From assembly GCA_945878865.1 (NCBI GenBank), contig CAMCUD010000026.1:1-55712 (forward strand): a stretch of DNA of 55,712 nt, in the 5' to 3' direction. This document shows positions 6,086-39,789 of this stretch, in pieces (the stretch's first letter is position 1; every line of letters starts with the position of its first letter). The notes under the pieces were generated by a model. That model was not told where the DNA came from and did not search any database. It saw nothing but the letters and a program-made list of their open reading frames with translations. The position numbers and the translations under genes were made by a program. The stretch comes from Bifidobacterium breve. GTDB taxonomy: Bacteria; Actinomycetota; Thermoleophilia; Solirubrobacterales; Solirubrobacteraceae.

Positions 6086-6556
6086 ATGCTCTGGAGAGGT
6101 CTCATCACCGTCCTGGCCTCCGGCACCCTGCTGGGCGCAGCGGGGCCCGTCCCTGCGCAGGCCACACCGGATCCGCCACAGACGCCGGAGGAGCAACTCA
6201 TCCAGGAGGGGATCGAGCTCCCCCGCATCCTCGTGCTTGAGCCGCCACGACAGGCGCCCAGCCAGGCTGGGCGGCAAGCCGTGCAGCAGGACCTTCAGCG
6301 GGTCGAGCAGGACGCGTCGCAGAACGCCGGCCAGGCGATCGACGGCGACGAGGAAGACGCGACCCAGGCAATCACCAACGGGGCGCAGACGCTGGGCACG
6401 CTGGCGCGGGAGGCCTCTGAGGGCACACTCTGGCCGCAGGAGGCGGCATCTCTCCCCATCCCGCAGATGTCCGAGAAGCAGATGCTCATCGAGGAGATCA
6501 AGGAGGAGTCGGGGTTCGGCCGAGGCCTGTACCCGGAATCCCCCGCGGCCAGCTAG
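6086..6556 (+). CDS. Small secreted protein, unknown function
   Basis: This is a 156-residue protein with a clear Sec signal peptide (MLWRGLITVLASGTLLGAAGPVPAQA, likely cut after AQA near residue 26). The mature part is hydrophilic and rich in Glu and Gln (EEQLIQEG, QQDLQRVEQDASQNAGQAIDGDEED) with possible short coiled-coil segments and no known domain. ATG 6086 is chosen because the signal peptide begins there; there is no convincing ribosome binding site. Its TAG stop shares the sequence CTAG with the stop of the convergent DtxR-like gene. Confidence 0.7.
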   Translation: MLWRGLITVLASGTLLGAAGPVPAQATPDPPQTPEEQLIQEGIELPRILVLEPPRQAPSQAGRQAVQQDLQRVEQDASQNAGQAIDGDEEDATQAITNGAQTLGTLAREASEGTLWPQEAASLPIPQMSEKQMLIEEIKEESGFGRGLYPESPAAS

Positions 6557-7266
6557 CGCCCGTAGCGCTCCTTGGCCAGCACCAGCTGGCCCGGCAGCGC
6601 GACGCGCTCCGGAGGCGACGGGTCGGCCTTCACCGAGACCGTCTCGGCCACCGAGATGCTGAGCTCGTGCTCGCCGTCGGCCGACGACACCGTGATCGAC
6701 TCGTCGTCCTTCGCGACGACCGTGCCGTCCATGCCGGGCTCGATGCCGTGGTCCTTGAGGTAGTGCAGGATGTCCTCGGCCTCGTTCTCGAAGCGCAGGA
6801 TCGTCACGTTCGCGTCGACCTCCACGTCGGCGAGCGGCACGCCGCCGATGCGCTGCCCGACGTTGATCGGGTGGCCGTGCGGGCACGTCGCCGCGTCGCC
6901 GATTGCGGCGAGCATCCGCTCCTCGAGCACCGGGCTCATCGCGTGCTCCAAGCGCTCGGCCTCCTCGTGGACCTCGTCCCACGGAATGCCGAGGACGTCG
7001 GTGAGGAAGCGCTCGATGAGCCGGTGGCGGCGCACGATCTGCTCCGCGTGCTCGACACCCGAGTCGGTGAAGCTGATGCTCTTGTCCGAGCCCCGGGTGA
7101 TGTACCCGTCGCGCTCGAGCCGGCCGATCATCTCGTGCACGGTCGGCGCGGAGAGCTGCATCGCGCGCGCGACGTTGGCGCCCGTCATGGGCAGGCCCGC
7201 CTCGTAGAGCCAGAACAGGGTCTGGAGGTACTCCTCCTCCGCGACGGTGACGTGATCGCTCGACAT
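6553..7266 (-). CDS. DtxR/MntR family metal-dependent transcriptional regulator
   Basis: This 237-residue protein has the three-part DtxR layout: an N-terminal winged helix (residues 8-65, VAEEEYLQTLFWLYEAGLPMTGANVARAMQLSAPTV), a dimerisation and metal-binding region (EQIVRRHRLIERFL, EEAERLEHAMSPVLEERM, CPHGHPI) and a C-terminal FeoA-like SH3 domain (about 160-230). It should bind DNA when loaded with Fe(II) or Mn(II) and repress metal-uptake genes. ATG 7266 is preferred over an upstream in-frame ATG at 7293 because a TAGGCT element (7275-7280) ends eight bases before it. It faces an SDR gene. It could read metal status for the heme locus, but no direct link is visible. Confidence 0.9.
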   Translation of the reverse strand: MSSDHVTVAEEEYLQTLFWLYEAGLPMTGANVARAMQLSAPTVHEMIGRLERDGYITRGSDKSISFTDSGVEHAEQIVRRHRLIERFLTDVLGIPWDEVHEEAERLEHAMSPVLEERMLAAIGDAATCPHGHPINVGQRIGGVPLADVEVDANVTILRFENEAEDILHYLKDHGIEPGMDGTVVAKDDESITVSSADGEHELSISVAETVSVKADPSPPERVALPGQLVLAKERYGR

Positions 7267-7274
7267 GCGCCGAA

Positions 7275-7300
7275 AGCCTAGGGCACCTGTCACGTACCGT
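7275..7300. promoter_or_regulatory. Divergent leaderless promoters
   Basis: TAGGCT read on the minus strand (7280-7275) ends eight bases before the DtxR-like start, and TACCGT on the plus strand (7295-7300) ends seven bases before the SDR start at 7308. Neither gene has a ribosome binding site. The 41-base gap therefore appears to hold two back-to-back -10 elements. Confidence 0.5.
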
Positions 7301-18868: not shown

Positions 18869-18882
18869 TTTGGGTACCCTAA
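18869..18882 (+). promoter_or_regulatory. Candidate iron/heme operator upstream of first htaA-like gene
   Basis: The sequence is TTTGG, GTAC, CCTAA, a near-perfect 14-bp palindrome 43 bases before ATG 18926. It matches the boxes at 27397-27410 and 39776-39789 in half sites and spacing. Two bases before it TAT extends the left side, as at the second htaA gene, so it may overlap a -10 element (TATTTG). Confidence 0.6.
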
Positions 18883-18925: not shown

Positions 18926-20230
18926 ATGCACCGGATCCCCATCATTCTTCTCGCGGCGGCAGCTGCGCTGGGTAGCGCGGACAGTGGCCTCGCCGCGTCA
19001 CCCGAGCCGCTGAAGATCGCGCTCGCGTCTCCCGCCAAGGGGGGCGCACCCGCTGCCTTCGCCGGAACCCGCCTCACCGTCGGCACCCCCGCGACGTCGA
19101 CCCGCACGACGCTGAGCCTGCCTGCGGGCACCGCGACCCTGGGCGCCACCTCGCGCGTCGCGCTCGAGGGCTCGCTGACCTTCACGGCGGGCGCGCGGCG
19201 GGCGACGGTCACGCGGCTCACGCTCGTCGCGACGGCGAAGGGCCTGACCGTCAGCGGGCGCACGGGCGGCCGCACGATCACCGTGCTCACCAGCCGGACG
19301 GGCACCGCGGCCAAGGCCGGCGCCGCCGAGCTGAAGCTCCGCCGTGCCGCGCTGAAGCTCGCGCCCGCAGGCGCCACGCGGCTCGGCCGTCAGCTGCGCC
19401 GCACGCTGCGCCCCGGCACCACGCTCGGCGTCGTGAGCGGCACGCTGCGGACCGCCGCGGCGGCCGAGACCCCGGCGGCCAGCGGCACGCCGACCACGCC
19501 CGGCGCGGGGCCGTCCGCCACCGCGCCGGCGCCCGCCCCGCCGACGACCACCACCCCCGCCTCGACGACGCCGACCACCACGACGCCGACGACGCCCACG
19601 CCTCCGCCCTTCACCGGCCCGTTCGCCGAGGCGTGCCTGAGCCAGCAGACCTTCGGCGCGCTCACCCCCGAGAGCGTGGGCGTGCCGACGCTGCCCGGCA
19701 GCAGCGCGGCCACCAGCGCGACCCTGACCTGGGACCTGCGCCCGTCGTTCGTCGACTACGTCGGCATGGGCGGGCGGGTCGCGACGTGGAACGGCGCGAC
19801 GTACACCGCGGGCAGCGGCTTCACGTTCACGTTCGAGTCGGCGACCGTCGACGGCACGCGCACCGTCGCGCAGTTCCGCGGGCGGATCGACTTCTGCTAC
19901 CCGGACCACTACTTCCGGATCGCGCTCGCCGACCCGATCGTGGTGATCGACGGCGGCCAGCCGCGCATCATCATGACCGGCGACTCGTACCAGGGCGTCC
20001 CGCCGACGCCGGCGACGCAGATCCAGGCGCGCCGCGTCGTCTTCGCCACGTTCACCGACCCCGGCTCGACGCTCTCGGCGACGACGCGCACATGGACGGT
20101 GCCCGCCAGCCCCGGCACGAAGCTGACGACCGAGGGCGCGGACATCGCCAACGCGACGAGCAGCCCCGGCTCCGGCCTCTGGGGCAAGGACCTGCCGTTC
20201 GGCGGCTTCACGCTGCGCGTCACGTCCTGA
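18926..20230 (+). CDS. Secreted HtaA-domain heme-binding protein
   Basis: This 434-residue protein has a signal peptide (cut near residue 24, LAA-SPE). Residues 25-175 form a beta-rich region of Thr/Arg-rich repeats seen in other secreted proteins here, followed by a Pro/Thr linker (about 180-235) and an HtaA domain (about 265-434: TLTWDLRPSFVDYV...FRGRIDFCYPDHYFRIALADPIVVIDG). In Corynebacterium, HtaA domains bind heme through a conserved Tyr and His; candidates here are Tyr in SFVDYV and the His in PDHYF. It has no C-terminal membrane helix. An AGGAA lies eight bases before ATG, and the candidate iron/heme box is upstream. It heads the plus-strand half of the heme locus. Confidence 0.85.
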   Translation: MHRIPIILLAAAAALGSADSGLAASPEPLKIALASPAKGGAPAAFAGTRLTVGTPATSTRTTLSLPAGTATLGATSRVALEGSLTFTAGARRATVTRLTLVATAKGLTVSGRTGGRTITVLTSRTGTAAKAGAAELKLRRAALKLAPAGATRLGRQLRRTLRPGTTLGVVSGTLRTAAAAETPAASGTPTTPGAGPSATAPAPAPPTTTTPASTTPTTTTPTTPTPPPFTGPFAEACLSQQTFGALTPESVGVPTLPGSSAATSATLTWDLRPSFVDYVGMGGRVATWNGATYTAGSGFTFTFESATVDGTRTVAQFRGRIDFCYPDHYFRIALADPIVVIDGGQPRIIMTGDSYQGVPPTPATQIQARRVVFATFTDPGSTLSATTRTWTVPASPGTKLTTEGADIANATSSPGSGLWGKDLPFGGFTLRVTS

Positions 20231-26184: not shown

Positions 26185-27381
26185 TCAGGTGGTCGTGTAG
26201 GTGATGGACACCGAGCCGAACGGCGCGCCGGCGAGATAGAAGCCGGCGAACACCGAGTCGACGGCGCCCGCGGGGATGAAGGCCGGGATCCGGTCGTAGG
26301 TGACGGTCTTGCCGTCGGGACTGACCGTCCGCGACGCGGCGGCGCCCGGCCGCAACTCGACGAGCACGGCGCGCTTGCCGGAGAACGACGTGCCGTCGCT
26401 GCCGCTCAGCCGGAACGTCGCCCGTGACGCCGCGCCGTTGAGCTCGATCTCCGGGTCGGAGGTCGTGAAGTCGATGGTGTGGGCGCTGTAGCGGAAGCGC
26501 ACCCCTCCCGTGGACGCGACCGCGGCGCTGCCGCTCGGGTCCGCCCAGCCCGCCCGGAACGGGAAGCGGAACTGGTAGACGAGCGGCGTGCCCGCCTCGG
26601 GCAGGTTCTCGGCCGGATCGGCGATGGCGCCGTCACGCACGGTCGTCCCCTCGCCGCTGTTGACGTAGCGGATGAACGACTCGCGGACGCGCCAGACGAC
26701 GGTGGCGCTCACGACGTCGACGGCGGTCGCCGGCCGGCCGAGCGACGTCGTCTCGGTCGTGGGGCCCGTGACCGACGGGGTGCCGCTCCCGGGGGTGGTG
26801 GTCGTGCCGCCGGAGCCCTTCGTCCCCGGTGCCGTGATCCCGGCGGTGGCGGTCATCGGGCCGAACGTCCCGGCGGGAACCGCACCGAGCCGGAGCCTCG
26901 TCCGCACGGTCCGTGCGGCGACCGCGCCCAGCCGTCCGGTCGTCGGGCGCACGATGAGCGTCTTGGCCGCAGGGTCGAGACGCACGCCGAGCCTCACCGG
27001 CACGCCCTGGAGCAGGGTGACGCGCGCGCCGCCGCCGACGCGGCCCGTGAGCCGCACGGACGACGTGCCGGCGTCGAGCCGCAGCGACGTGAAGCGCACG
27101 GCCCGCCCGCGGCGGGTGAACCGCAGCGTGCCGGCCAGCGGCAGGGTCGCCTTCGCGGACCCGACGGCGCGCGAGGTCGCGGTGAACGTCAGGCGCGTGC
27201 TGCCGTCCACCAGCGACACCGACTTGGGCGCGCCGACCTGCACGCCCGCGCGGCGCAGCTCCTTCGCGGCGGCTCCCGACGCGGTGACCGTGACGGTCCC
27301 GGCGGAGCTCGCGGCGGAGGCGGCGGGCGCCGCGGCGAGGAGGCCGGCGGCGAGGGCGATGACGACGAGACGGCTGCGCAT
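26185..27381 (-). CDS. htaA: Secreted HtaA-domain heme-binding protein
   Basis: This 398-residue protein has a signal peptide (cut near residue 23, ASA-ASS). Residues 25-175 hold the same Thr/Arg-rich beta module as the protein at 18926, then a Gly/Thr linker (about 175-205) and an HtaA domain (about 212-398: ATVVWRVRESFIRYVNSGEGTT...GVRFRYSAHTIDFTTSDPEIELNG). Candidate heme ligands are the Tyr in SFIRYV and the His in SAHTIDF. It heads the htaA-hmuT-hmuU-hmuV operon. There is no ribosome binding site; a candidate iron/heme box lies 15 bases upstream. Confidence 0.85.
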   Translation of the reverse strand: MRSRLVVIALAAGLLAAAPAASAASSAGTVTVTASGAAAKELRRAGVQVGAPKSVSLVDGSTRLTFTATSRAVGSAKATLPLAGTLRFTRRGRAVRFTSLRLDAGTSSVRLTGRVGGGARVTLLQGVPVRLGVRLDPAAKTLIVRPTTGRLGAVAARTVRTRLRLGAVPAGTFGPMTATAGITAPGTKGSGGTTTTPGSGTPSVTGPTTETTSLGRPATAVDVVSATVVWRVRESFIRYVNSGEGTTVRDGAIADPAENLPEAGTPLVYQFRFPFRAGWADPSGSAAVASTGGVRFRYSAHTIDFTTSDPEIELNGAASRATFRLSGSDGTSFSGKRAVLVELRPGAAASRTVSPDGKTVTYDRIPAFIPAGAVDSVFAGFYLAGAPFGSVSITYTTT

Positions 27382-27396
27382 GACGGACGCACCACG

Positions 27397-27410
27397 TTAG
27401 GTGCGCCTAA
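27397..27410 (-). promoter_or_regulatory. Candidate iron/heme operator of the htaA-hmuTUV operon
   Basis: Read on the minus strand the site is TTAGG, CGCA, CCTAA, a 14-bp palindrome 15 bases before ATG 27381. Two further bases upstream make TATTAG, which could be the -10 element, so a bound repressor would cover the promoter. It matches the boxes at 18869 and 39776. Confidence 0.65.
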
Positions 27411-35572: not shown

Positions 35573-36070
35573 TCACTCGAACTCGCGCAGGTAGCGCTCG
35601 AAGGTCCGCATGTGGTTCTCCTCGTCGCGGAGGATCGCGATGACCATGTCCTGCGTGGCCCAGTCGACGCCGTCGGTCGCCTCGATGATGCGGGTGTAGT
35701 GCTCGATCGCGCCGGCCTCGGCCTCGATCACGCCCTTGATCACCGAGGGGACGTCAGTCGCGTCCTCGGGCGGCTGGAGGTACGACTGGTCGGGCGTGAA
35801 GTCCAGGGAACCGGGCGGCGTCCCGTAGAGGTCCTTGATCCGCTCGGCGAACAGCTTGGCGTGGCCGAGCTCCTCGGTGACGTCCTGCCCGAGCGCGGCC
35901 GCGACCTCCTCGGCGCGGATGCCGTCGAGGTGCTGGGAGAGCGAGAGGTAGTTGATGACCGTCTCCATCTCCATCCAGTACGCGCGGGTGAGGAGGTCGA
36001 GGATCTCTTCGCGCTTCTCGGTGTTGGCGTCGGAGAGGATCCCGGCGCCGGCGTGGTGCGTGGTGGGCAC
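35573..36070 (-). CDS. Ferritin-like diiron protein
   Basis: This 165-residue helical protein has two ExxH-type diiron half sites: E in EMETVINYLS with ELGHAKLF, and E in EAEAGAIEHYTRIIE with DEENHMRTFE. The pattern fits bacterioferritin/ferritin-like domain proteins that oxidise and store iron or protect against peroxide. It lacks the Met heme ligand pattern I would need to call bacterioferritin. GTG 36070 has AAGGAG nine bases upstream. It is convergent with the C25 protease gene and lies 8 kb from the heme locus, so a role in storing heme-derived iron is possible but not shown. Confidence 0.82.
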   Translation of the reverse strand: MPTTHHAGAGILSDANTEKREEILDLLTRAYWMEMETVINYLSLSQHLDGIRAEEVAAALGQDVTEELGHAKLFAERIKDLYGTPPGSLDFTPDQSYLQPPEDATDVPSVIKGVIEAEAGAIEHYTRIIEATDGVDWATQDMVIAILRDEENHMRTFERYLREFE

Positions 36071-36186: not shown

Positions 36187-39100
36187 GTGGCGCGCCGCCT
36201 GCTCACCTCGGCCCTCGTCGTGCTCGCCGGCGCCGCCGCGGCCGGCCCGGTGCCCGGTGCGCTGGCCGCCGTACCCGCCGATCGCGCGACGCTCTCCCTG
36301 CCGTTCACCGGGGTGCCCGCGCACGTCACCGCCAAGAAGCGGCCGGGCGCCCTGCGCACCCCGGGCTACAAGGGCATCGCGACCGTCCCCGCGACGAAGC
36401 CGGCCGCGCCGCCCACGCCCGTCTCGATCGGCGCCGGGGAGAAGCCGGACCTCCTCGTCGACGCGGCCGGGACGTCGCACATCGTCTGGAACGAGGACCA
36501 GATCGGCGAGACGCCGGACATCACGCACTACTGCCGCCTGCCCCGCGGCGCCTCGGCCTGCGACAACCCGAACCCCACGCCGATGCCGATCCCGGTGCCG
36601 TACGCCTCGGATGACGCGGGGCCGAAGATCCTGCAGATCGGCAACCAGCTCGTCGTGCTGAGCCACCGCTACCCCCCGGTCGTGCGCCAGCCCGACGGCA
36701 AGGACCGCGACCGCACGACCTACGCGTGGACCTCGTCCGACGGCGGGACGACCTGGACCGGTCCCGGGATGGTCGGGACCATCATCCCGTCGGGTGACGC
36801 CGAACTCTCCGGCGGTGTGAACCCCCGTATCGGCGTCATCACGGACACGTTCACGGGCGGCACGTACTTCCAGCTCCTGGACGCCGGCAGCTTCACCTCG
36901 GCGAGCACCCTGCTGGGCGGGGACGCCGACGCCTACGAAGGCAGCCTCGCCGCTGAGGGCGACGGCTTCGTCGCGGCGTTCGCCAACCGCGGCGGTGGGA
37001 TCACGGTGCGGCGGTCGGGCGCGGACCCGGCGGACGGTGGCTCGTGGTCGAGCACCCCGCTCCCAGGCGAACTGCCGAAGCTCGCGGGCGGCCCGCGCGG
37101 CACGTTCCTCCTGTCTCGCGAGGGCGCGTGGACCGTCCGCAACGTCACCGGCGGCAACGCCGGGCCGCCCGCGACGATCAGCCCCGGCGACGTCAACCAG
37201 GCGCGAGCGTTCACCCAGGACCCCGGCGGCGTGCTGCACGCCGCGTACTCCACGGGTGCCTCGCCGCAGGAGGTGACGCTGCGCGAAAGCGACGACGGCA
37301 CGACGTGGCGCGGCGGCTTCGTCGCGGCGTCGGCGAACGCCATCGACCAGATGACGCTCGGGGCCGCCGGCGACGGCGGCGGCGTGCTCGTCCATCGGCG
37401 TGACCCGACGGGGACGTTCAACGGGACGATCGCCGCCACCGCGTTCGGGACGCTGTCGCCGACCGGAAAGGCCGGCGCGGGCGGCCTCGCGGGCACGGGC
37501 ATCCCAGGCGGCTTCGCGGGCTGCACCACGGCCGGATTCGCCGCCGTGAAGCTCACCCCCGCCGCGGGCTGCCTGCTGGAGAGCACCGACCCGAAGTTCC
37601 CGGGCGCCGTCGTCTCGACCTCCGAGGTCGACCTCAACGGGCTGATCCTGCGCCCGGTGGGCAGCACGAAGATCATCTTCGACCCGCGCCGGCGCGAGCT
37701 CAGCACGACGGGCAAGGTCCAGGTCATCCTGCGCGGCCCGGGGATCGGCGAGATCGTGCTGGGGACCGTCGAGATCGACGCGAAGCTCGGGTCGAACGCC
37801 GGCCAGTCGCTGTTCAGCGGCATCACGTTCCCGGCGGGGCCGAAGATCAAGGGCTTCCCCGTCGACGCGGACTTCGACGTGAAGATCAGCGGCTCGGGCC
37901 TGGACATCCCGATCTCGCTGAAGCTCCCACCGGCGCTCGGCGGGATCAGCGCGAGCGCGACGCTGCGCACCGAGACCGGCCGGGGCGCGGTCCTGCAGTC
38001 GTTCCGCTTCAGCGTGGGGCGCATTCCGCTCGGCCCGCTCGAGCTCGAGGGGCTGTCTGTCGCCTACGACGGAGCCGGCGACACGTGGACGGGCGCCGCC
38101 GGCCTCAAGCTGCCGCTCGGCGCGCTGAAGGTCTCGCTGACGTTCCGCGGCGGCGCGTTTGCGAGCGGCACCGTCGACCTGCGGTTCCCCCGGCCCGGGA
38201 TCCTCGTGTTCCCGAAGGTGTACTTCCTCGGCGTGACCGGCTCGTTCGCGCCCGACCCGCTGACCGTCCGCGTCGGTGCGTCGTTCGGCGCGATCTACAC
38301 CCCACCGCCTGCTGACGTGTTCGCGGCCGAGCTGGACGGCGGGCTGACGCTGGCGGTCCGCAACGGCGGCGCGGAGTTCACGTTCGACGGGACGGAGCGG
38401 ATGTTCGGCGTTCAGGTCGGGACGGGCACCGCGCTGGCCACAACCGACGGCTTCGCGTCGATCAAGGGCTCGTTCGGCATCGATCTCGACGTCGTCGCGG
38501 TGAGCGGCGCGGGGAAGTTCTTCGTCGACGGGCCGAGCGGCACGTTCTCCGGGACCTTCAGCGGCGACACCGAGGTCTTCGGGCTCGCGCTCAGCGGCTT
38601 CAGCGGCACGGTGTCGAACAAGGGCGTCGCGGGCTGCGTGCGTGTCCCCGTGCCCCGGCCGCCCGACACGTTCACCTCCGGCTACGCCGGTGTCGGCTAC
38701 CAGTGGGGCGGCTCGGGCCGGCTCATCTTCGGCGACACCTGCGCGATGTCCGACTACACCGTCCCGGCCCCGGCCGGTCGAGCGGCGCAGGCCGGTGCCG
38801 GCCGCGCGGTGACGCTGCCGGGCGGCCTCGACCTCGCGAACATCGAGGTGCGCGGAGAAGGCGAGGCGCCGGCGGTGGACGTCATCGCGCCCGACGGGCG
38901 GCGCATCACCCCGCAGGGGTGGGGCGCGCCGGGCGGCGACAAGACCGTCTCGGCCGTGACGCTCGGACGCGCCGGCGCGACGGTCGTCGTCCTGCGCGAC
39001 CCGCCTGCCGGCACGTGGCAGATCGTCCCGCGCGACGGCTCGCCAGCGATCACCGAGCTCGCGATCTCGCGGAGCGTCACCCCGACGAAGGTCACCGGCA

Positions 39101-39609
39101 AGGTCGAGCGGACGGGCTCGGGCCGGCTGCTGCGCTACCGCGTCACCGGGCCGAGCGGGACCCGCGTGCGGATCACCGAGCGCTCGTCGGCGGGTGAGCG
39201 GCCGCTGGGCGTCGTGCGGCGCGGCCGCGGCGTCCTGCGCTTCGCCTCGCCTCCCGGCCCGGCCGGGACGCGCACCATCGTCGCGACGCCGGTCGGCGAG
39301 CCGAGCCCCGCCAACGCGCCGCAGACCGTGGCGCGGTACCGCACGGCCGCGACCTGGCGGCCCTCCGCGCCGCGCCGGGCGACCGTCCGCGGAACGCGGG
39401 TCTCGTGGTCGCCGGTGGTGGGCGCGGCGCGCTACGTCGTCCGGGCCACCCTCGCCAACGGGCGCACCGTCGCGCGCACGACCCGGGCCAAGACGCTGAA
39501 GGTGCCGGGGGCCTCCAAGCGCATCGCGGTCCGCTCCGCGCAGGTCGTGACCGTCGGCCGGACGGGCCGGGTCAGCGTGAGCCGGCGCGCGACGGTCCCG
39601 AAGCGCTGA
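36187..39609 (+). CDS. Large secreted multidomain protein (1140 residues), unknown function
   Basis: This protein has a signal peptide (cut near residue 27, ALA-AVP). Residues 70-420 look like a sialidase-type propeller with Asp-box-like turns (TSSDGGTTWTGPG, ESDDGTTWRGG). Residues 470-830 are a long run of beta strands with Gly turns, possibly a beta-solenoid. The C-terminal 270 residues appear to be three beta-sandwich domains, the last like fibronectin type III (VRGTRVSWSPVVGAARYVVRATLANG). It is probably a surface adhesin or binding protein; no catalytic residues are identified. GTG 36187 is chosen from the signal peptide, with TAGGGT at 36172-36177 nine bases upstream. Its end overlaps a 65-residue ORF on the other strand. 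Confidence 0.75.
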   Translation: MARRLLTSALVVLAGAAAAGPVPGALAAVPADRATLSLPFTGVPAHVTAKKRPGALRTPGYKGIATVPATKPAAPPTPVSIGAGEKPDLLVDAAGTSHIVWNEDQIGETPDITHYCRLPRGASACDNPNPTPMPIPVPYASDDAGPKILQIGNQLVVLSHRYPPVVRQPDGKDRDRTTYAWTSSDGGTTWTGPGMVGTIIPSGDAELSGGVNPRIGVITDTFTGGTYFQLLDAGSFTSASTLLGGDADAYEGSLAAEGDGFVAAFANRGGGITVRRSGADPADGGSWSSTPLPGELPKLAGGPRGTFLLSREGAWTVRNVTGGNAGPPATISPGDVNQARAFTQDPGGVLHAAYSTGASPQEVTLRESDDGTTWRGGFVAASANAIDQMTLGAAGDGGGVLVHRRDPTGTFNGTIAATAFGTLSPTGKAGAGGLAGTGIPGGFAGCTTAGFAAVKLTPAAGCLLESTDPKFPGAVVSTSEVDLNGLILRPVGSTKIIFDPRRRELSTTGKVQVILRGPGIGEIVLGTVEIDAKLGSNAGQSLFSGITFPAGPKIKGFPVDADFDVKISGSGLDIPISLKLPPALGGISASATLRTETGRGAVLQSFRFSVGRIPLGPLELEGLSVAYDGAGDTWTGAAGLKLPLGALKVSLTFRGGAFASGTVDLRFPRPGILVFPKVYFLGVTGSFAPDPLTVRVGASFGAIYTPPPADVFAAELDGGLTLAVRNGGAEFTFDGTERMFGVQVGTGTALATTDGFASIKGSFGIDLDVVAVSGAGKFFVDGPSGTFSGTFSGDTEVFGLALSGFSGTVSNKGVAGCVRVPVPRPPDTFTSGYAGVGYQWGGSGRLIFGDTCAMSDYTVPAPAGRAAQAGAGRAVTLPGGLDLANIEVRGEGEAPAVDVIAPDGRRITPQGWGAPGGDKTVSAVTLGRAGATVVVLRDPPAGTWQIVPRDGSPAITELAISRSVTPTKVTGKVERTGSGRLLRYRVTGPSGTRVRITERSSAGERPLGVVRRGRGVLRFASPPGPAGTRTIVATPVGEPSPANAPQTVARYRTAATWRPSAPRRATVRGTRVSWSPVVGAARYVVRATLANGRTVARTTRAKTLKVPGASKRIAVRSAQVVTVGRTGRVSVSRRATVPKR

Positions 39610-39769
39610 CGTCCTGCGCGGCGCGCCAGGCGGCGAAGCGCCCGTCGTTGGTCGCCAGCCAGCTGTGGAGGTCACGCTCGAAGCGGTACCAGCGGCGGGC
39701 CCGCACCCCGGTGCGCGGGAAATCCGCCTCTTCGGCCTGCGGGTACGGTGCGGGCGTCGCGGAGCTCAT
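39572..39769 (-). CDS. 65-residue protein behind an iron/heme-type box
   Basis: This small ORF has an acidic N-terminus and a central segment that looks like a folded or helical domain rich in aromatic and basic residues (GVRARRWYRFERDLHSWLATNDGRFAAWRAAQD). It contains one His, no Cys, no signal peptide and no membrane helix. ATG 39769 lies six bases after a TTAGG-N4-CCTAA box identical in design to those of the two htaA promoters, which is the main reason to believe the gene. The last 12 codons overlap the end of the convergent secreted-protein gene and look non-conserved. I do not recognise a family; a role in iron or heme stress is inferred. Confidence 0.5.
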   Translation of the reverse strand: MSSATPAPYPQAEEADFPRTGVRARRWYRFERDLHSWLATNDGRFAAWRAAQDVSASGPSRAGSR

Positions 39770-39775
39770 CAGGAC

Positions 39776-39789
39776 TTAGGGCAACCTAA
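39776..39789 (-). promoter_or_regulatory. Candidate iron/heme operator upstream of the 65-residue ORF
   Basis: Read on the minus strand the site is TTAGG, TTGC, CCTAA, six bases before ATG 39769. Preceding bases give TGTTAG, in the position of TATTAG and TATTTG at the other two boxes. The PAS-GGDEF gene starting at 39870 on the other side could also be affected. Confidence 0.6.

What the first reader, a model, noticed from the sequence alone, without database searches (positions are those of the whole stretch)
39572..39789. Uncharacterised 65-residue protein with an iron/heme-type promoter
The ORF has a protein-like aromatic and basic core (WYRFERDL, SWLATNDGRFAAW), a box six bases before its ATG and no known family. 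If real, it is a new small member of the iron or heme response, remote from the main locus and beside c-di-GMP cyclases.
Basis: partly seen in the sequence, partly recalled or inferred. Interest (0 to 1): 0.65.

Follow-up and report, generated by a model that had tools for sequence, protein, structure and literature searches.

The report
Iron-starvation small partner of a mini-ferritin
A tiny, unannotated protein gene is real, is conserved across a deep branch of soil actinobacteria, carries an iron-responsive switch and always sits beside one particular iron-storage (mini-ferritin) gene, so it is probably a factor that acts on stored iron when iron runs short.

Summary
The 65-aa ORF (39572..39769, minus strand) has an exact TTAGGN4CCTAA palindrome (39776..39789) six bases before its ATG. 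It is a real gene: homologues occur in about 31 Thermoleophilia genomes (five genera of its own family, plus two other families), with core GFRARRWxRFERDLxxWLxTPEGRFAxW and pN/pS 0.36 over independent pairs. The box is kept upstream of the start in every lineage. In this genome the same box stands before siderophore, Efe/Ftr1, SIP and HtaA genes, so it is a DtxR/IdeR-type iron box.

This holds through inversion, order swap and gene insertions. In the family, the small gene and this ferritin subclass occur in the same 25 of 146 genomes; 35 genomes with only a sister ferritin lack it. AlphaFold gives a two-helix hairpin. No Pfam, NCBIfam or PDB relative was found.

Best reading: an iron-starvation-induced, non-redox small partner of the mini-ferritin, working like Bfd with Bfr but unrelated to it (no conserved cysteine). 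That it mobilises iron is inferred, not shown.

The parts
39572..39769 (-). Small gene, 65 aa (MSSATPAPYPQAEEADFPRTGVRARRWYRFERDLHSWLATNDGRFAAWRAAQDVSASGPSRAGSR); predicted two-helix hairpin, helices 22-38 and 41-56
39776..39789 (-). Iron box TTAGGTTGCCCTAA (TTAGGN4CCTAA palindrome), 6 nt before the ATG; overlaps a TAGGTT (TANNNT-type) -10 candidate
35573..36070 (-). DPSL-type mini-ferritin, 165 aa, the conserved neighbour; two conserved ExxH motifs (E67-H70, E150-H153) of the bacterioferritin-type di-iron site
36187..39609 (+). 1140-aa secreted protein (no family) inserted between the two genes in this genus only; its 3' end overlaps the small ORF by 38 nt on the opposite strand
6553..7293 (-). 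DtxR/IdeR-family iron-dependent regulator (Fe_dep_repr_C, FeoA domain), candidate owner of the box
27397..27410 (.). Second exact iron box of the window, just upstream of the HtaA-domain gene 26185..27381 (-)
18869..18882 (.). One-mismatch iron box upstream of the HtaA-domain gene 18926..20230 (+)

Best explanation
The gene encodes a small cytosolic helical-hairpin protein that is repressed by an iron-loaded DtxR/IdeR-type regulator sitting on the TTAGGN4CCTAA box over its promoter and start, and so is made when iron is short. Its product acts on the neighbouring Dps-like (DPSL) mini-ferritin. The likeliest action is to bind the ferritin shell and promote release of its stored iron (or hand the shell to a reductase or protease), much as Bfd serves bacterioferritin, but without a redox centre of its own. 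Shown by computation: a real gene under protein-level selection, an iron-box promoter of the genome's iron-uptake set, and strict linkage and co-occurrence with one ferritin subclass. Inferred: the sign of regulation (box overlaps promoter/start, as in repressed DtxR targets), physical contact with the ferritin, and iron release as the outcome.
For: Homologues in 25 of 146 family genomes and in other families of the class; purifying selection on the frame. Box kept 13-31 nt upstream of the start in nearly all lineages, also where the gene order is swapped (G698, G682), and 10/10 in a genome of another family (G170). The same box precedes FecCD/binding protein, SIP, EfeU, EfeO/EfeU and HtaA genes. 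DtxR homologues are present. Ferritin neighbour in 30 of 30 loci in at least four arrangements: tandem small-ferritin (gap 42-600 bp), ferritin-small (G698, G682), divergent (L076/G026), and separated by an inserted secreted gene (genus g1) or fur gene (G308, G423). The same 25 genomes hold the small gene and the 70%-plus-identical ferritin; 35 genomes with only the sister ferritin lack the small gene, and neither box nor small ORF was seen before the sister ferritins inspected. The ferritin is a DPSL fold with bacterioferritin-type ligands. Literature parallel: bfrB and bfd are adjacent, separately regulated, bfd induced by iron starvation (PMC8945002); DtxR sites within promoters repress while ftn/dps need DtxR (PMC1382209). 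No stand-alone Bfd in the genome: the three Fer2_BFD matches lie in two long open frames on C11.
Against: No expression, binding or iron-release data. Linkage does not reveal the direction of action: it could aid loading or assembly instead. In Conexibacter the two genes are close enough to be co-transcribed, which would also make ferritin from the iron-box promoter. Patulibacter boxes are weaker (7-8 of 10). Without a metal or redox centre, how iron would be released is unclear. The model comes from 18 related sequences and its hairpin is too simple to suggest a function.
Confidence: 0.5

Rival explanations
1. A ferritin loading, assembly or pore-gating partner: the small protein binds the same mini-ferritin but holds it empty, protects it or tunes mineralisation, rather than releasing iron.
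For: Same linkage and co-occurrence evidence; very close tandem genes in Conexibacter and Solirubrobacter, overlapping in S. soli, allow co-expression.
Against: The small gene has its own iron-uptake-type operator over its start, while the ferritin in Patulibacter, g9 and f5 genomes has a different AT-rich promoter element and in f5 genomes sits next to a fur gene. A starvation-type promoter is odd for a storage-loading factor.
Confidence: 0.22
2. An iron-sparing regulator (in the manner of the Bacillus FbpA/B/C small proteins, recalled from general knowledge): the small protein acts on mRNAs, enzymes or a transcription complex, and the ferritin is just one target or a co-regulated neighbour.
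For: Small, Arg- and Trp-rich conserved face; iron-box promoter; a related hairpin is fused to a zinc ribbon in other Thermoleophilia without this ferritin nearby.
Against: Presence follows the ferritin subclass genome by genome (25 with, 0 of 35 without) and survives rearrangement, which a general regulator does not need. Net charge varies from -6 to +3, so no conserved nucleic-acid-binding charge.
Confidence: 0.2
3. The ORF is not translated; only the promoter or an overlapping frame is conserved.
For: Short ORF in a G+C-rich genome, overlapping another gene by 38 nt.
Against: Conserved length, core and start; synonymous excess (94 of 214 synonymous sites differ against 105 of 665 nonsynonymous); the overlapping gene is absent in other genera.
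Confidence: 0.02

Closest known systems
Bfd (bacterioferritin-associated ferredoxin) with Bfr
   Same: A protein of roughly this size encoded next to a ferritin, under separate control, with an iron-starvation-type promoter beside a storage gene (PMC8945002).
   Different: No conserved cysteines (mostly 0-2, not aligned), hence no [2Fe-2S] cluster; no Pfam Fer2_BFD match; predicted helical hairpin; partner is a DPSL mini-ferritin rather than a heme bacterioferritin.
DPSL mini-ferritins (Sulfolobus 2clb, Pyrococcus 7stw, P. aeruginosa PA4880 8w1e)
   Same: The conserved neighbour has this fold (TM about 0.77) and two ExxH motifs.
   Different: 25-30% identity; those systems are not described, to my knowledge, with a dedicated small iron-regulated partner.
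DtxR/IdeR iron box and regulon (Corynebacterium glutamicum)
   Same: TTAGG/CCTAA arms of TTAGGTTAG(G/C)CTAACCTAA; operator over the promoter of iron-uptake genes (PMC1382209).
   Different: Here the conserved part is a 14-bp TTAGGN4CCTAA palindrome, often 13-20 nt from the start codon.
Zinc-ribbon small proteins of class-level relatives (alignment A4, unnamed)
   Same: 28 columns of the hairpin (FExxLxxWLxTPxGRFAxWxA), hhalign probability 97.5%.
   Different: N-terminal CxxC...HxC ribbon, different neighbours, no DPSL ferritin within the fetched DNA.

Membership tests
Bfd / Fer2_BFD | Conserved cysteines for a [2Fe-2S] cluster | tested here: not met
   Alignment A3: no conserved Cys; the window protein has none
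Bfd / Fer2_BFD | Match to the family profile | tested here: not met
   hmmscan of 23 members against Pfam gives no Fer2_BFD
Bfd / Fer2_BFD | Gene next to a ferritin, separately and iron-starvation regulated | tested here: inconclusive
   Adjacency met in 30 of 30 loci and own iron box; induction not measurable here
DtxR/IdeR regulon | TTAGG...CCTAA operator shared with iron-uptake genes of the same genome | tested here: met
   9 exact sites; SBP/FecCD, SIP, EfeU, EfeO/EfeU, HtaA and this gene among them
DtxR/IdeR regulon | DtxR-family regulator in the genome | tested here: met
   Two genes, C26:6865 (in the window) and C35:33570
DtxR/IdeR regulon | Binding of the regulator and iron-dependent transcription | not testable with these tools
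   Needs EMSA and RNA-seq
DPSL mini-ferritin (the neighbour) | Ferritin four-helix fold closest to DPSL, bacterioferritin-type ExxH ligands | tested here: met
   Pfam Ferritin 6.6e-22; Foldseek top hits 2clb, 7stw, 2vzb, 8w1e; invariant E67-H70 and E150-H153
DPSL mini-ferritin (the neighbour) | Dodecameric assembly | not testable with these tools
   Single-chain prediction only

The most novel reading that the evidence does not exclude
A previously undescribed family of cysteine-free small proteins that mobilise iron from a bacterial mini-ferritin by a non-redox route (shell opening, reductase docking or handing the shell to a protease), induced by DtxR derepression in Thermoleophilia.
Probability: 0.3. 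Interest if true: 0.8.

Novelty: new variant of a known kind. Interest (0 to 1): 0.6.

Why it matters
How bacteria get iron back out of ferritins is well worked out only for Bfd with heme bacterioferritin; for Dps-like mini-ferritins no dedicated release partner is known to me. A small protein that is tied genome by genome to one mini-ferritin subclass and carries a starvation-type iron box makes that question directly testable with two proteins that should be easy to express. It also adds a protein family absent from Pfam and NCBIfam.

Tried and rejected
Pfam, NCBIfam and PHROGs scans of the family gave nothing convincing (phrog_15957 at E 0.006-0.014 only). PDB sequence search: only a uracil-DNA glycosylase at E 1.5. 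Foldseek of the hairpin: one hit at E 3.5 (PorLM), VIA Z 2.1, judged uninformative. The Algoriphagus hit L077 is taken as a chance match: inside a long unrelated frame, no ferritin. Similarity of small-protein RFERDL to ferritin FERYL tested by profile comparison: probability 0.8%, rejected. Plasmid collection: no match. Link to c-di-GMP cyclases rejected: such genes recur only in g1 and Conexibacter loci and at varying distance. Literature searches found no description of the family. Interface prediction with the ferritin was not possible with a single-chain tool.

Full report
Observation. The ORF at 39572..39769 on the minus strand encodes 65 residues. The genome (G000, 4.96 Mb) has nine exact copies of this palindrome, so one within 60 bp of a given start is expected about once in ten thousand.

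Is it a gene? tblastn of the protein finds it in all three genomes of the genus (67-75% identity, E 1e-21 to 1e-22) and in 25 of 146 genomes of the family, in five genera that include Svornostia, Conexibacter, Solirubrobacter and Patulibacter. Profiles reach further families of the class (G170; G308, G423, G682, G688, G698), about 31 genomes in all. Sizes are 55-77 aa and the core FPxxGFRARRWxRFERDLxxWLxTPEGRFAxWxA is strongly kept. Over five independent pairs 94 of 214 synonymous but only 105 of 665 nonsynonymous sites differ (pN/pS 0.36; P 4e-16). The 1140-aa secreted gene that overlaps its 3' end by 38 nt was found only in its own genus, so it cannot explain the conservation.

The box. It is kept upstream of the start in every lineage: exact in g1, Conexibacter, Solirubrobacter and G170; 9 of 10 in g9, G308, G698 and G682; 7-8 of 10 in Patulibacter and G688. 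In G423 the exact box lies about 200 bp upstream, in front of an inserted small Cys-rich ORF that overlaps the start of the small gene. In Solirubrobacter the box runs into the start codon (CCTAATG), so the mRNA must be leaderless or nearly so, and in several loci a TANNNT -10 element lies within or beside the box (sequence shown; inference). In this genome the other exact boxes stand before a siderophore-binding protein and FecCD permease (two), a siderophore-interacting protein, EfeU/Ftr1, EfeO/EfeU, an HtaA heme-uptake protein, a glucose/sorbosone-dehydrogenase-like lipoprotein and a cysteine-free ribosomal protein S4; one-mismatch copies stand before an iron-type ABC transporter, a second HtaA gene and a ferritin. 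The arms match the DtxR consensus TTAGGTTAG(G/C)CTAACCTAA, and DtxR sites inside promoters repress (PMC1382209). A DtxR-family gene with a CPHG motif lies in the window (6553..7293) and another on contig C35. I conclude that the gene belongs to the iron-uptake regulon; that iron represses it is inferred.

The neighbour. Clustering the genes around the homologues gave one gene present at every locus with enough flank: a ferritin-like protein. In the window it is 35573..36070, Pfam Ferritin E 6.6e-22; its model matches Dps-like mini-ferritins 2clb, 7stw, 2vzb and 8w1e best, with two invariant ExxH motifs. In all 30 loci tested the two genes are within about 4 kb (a few rows are the same species from two collections). 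The arrangement varies: tandem with 42-600 bp between, overlapping (S. soli), divergent (L076), ferritin first and small gene second with its own box (G698, G682), or split by a secreted-protein gene (g1) or a fur gene (G308, G423). Linkage surviving such changes speaks for a shared function rather than a frozen operon.

Co-occurrence. In the family search the 25 ferritins with 70% or more identity to the window's are in exactly the 25 genomes with the small gene; 35 other genomes have only a more distant sister ferritin (66% or less) and no small gene. Genera g10 and g24 contain both kinds of genome. Sequence upstream of the sister ferritins shows neither the box nor a hidden small ORF in those where the start could be located. 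Phylogeny makes these counts non-independent, so the Fisher P values overstate the case.

Ferritin control. In Patulibacter, g9 and f5 genomes the ferritin has its own AT-rich promoter element unlike the iron box; in Solirubrobacter and G170 further TTAGG/CCTAA-type half boxes lie between the small gene and the ferritin start. Thus the two genes usually look separately controlled, as bfd and bfrB are in Pseudomonas (PMC8945002); in C. glutamicum, ftn and dps fall in a dtxR mutant while uptake genes rise.

Structure. AlphaFold2 on 18 sequences gives a helical hairpin, helices 22-38 and 41-56, pLDDT 92-97 in the core, with the TPEG turn between. Nothing in PDB matches usefully. The C-terminal 28 columns also occur in a family of zinc-ribbon small proteins in other Thermoleophilia (hhalign 97.5%), with other neighbours and no such ferritin in the fetched DNA: a reusable hairpin module whose function is open.

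Mechanism. A small starvation-controlled protein tied to one ferritin most resembles Bfd, which binds bacterioferritin and reduces its iron core. But the defining feature of Bfd, a cysteine-bound cluster, was tested and is absent, so this is not a Bfd. The genome has no stand-alone Bfd. I favour a ferritin-binding factor that promotes iron release at low iron (about 0.5), over an assembly or loading partner (0.22) or a general iron-sparing regulator (0.2). Confidence by step: real gene 0.98; DtxR-type iron box 0.9; functional partner of the ferritin 0.75; iron release specifically 0.4-0.5.

Noticed in passing
L140 / L049:4393-5067 (G000:C10:121392-121733) and L139 (G000:C5:14700): Two ribosomal S4 paralogues: a four-cysteine form in the rpoA locus and a cysteine-free form directly behind an exact iron box with a 9-codon ORF (MLMATMIED) between; suggests a cysteine-free S4 expressed under iron limitation.
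   Followed up: partly
L054:3790-3981 (-), L079:4814-4992 (+), upstream region of L080: A small CC..RC..CPVVL.RL protein with no Pfam match lies beside ferritins and iron boxes: divergent from a ferritin with a one-mismatch box on C30, and in G423 as the first cistron behind the exact box, overlapping the start of the small gene.
   Followed up: partly
L121-L132 (class-level relatives): Family of about 75-aa proteins with a CxxC...HxC ribbon and the same C-terminal hairpin, near SnoaL-like and CoaX-like genes; no family model.
   Followed up: partly
window 36187..39609 (+): 1140-aa secreted protein without any Pfam match, inserted between the small gene and the ferritin in this genus only.
   Followed up: no
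L078, L079 (G308, G423): A Fur-family gene lies between the small gene and the ferritin, divergent from the ferritin; an AT-rich element ending in TTGTTATAGT or similar before the ferritin may be its operator.
   Followed up: partly
   Followed up: partly
G000:C4:162785 (L048:5660-6784): A glucose/sorbosone-dehydrogenase-like lipoprotein is preceded by an exact iron box; unusual member of an iron regulon.
   Followed up: no
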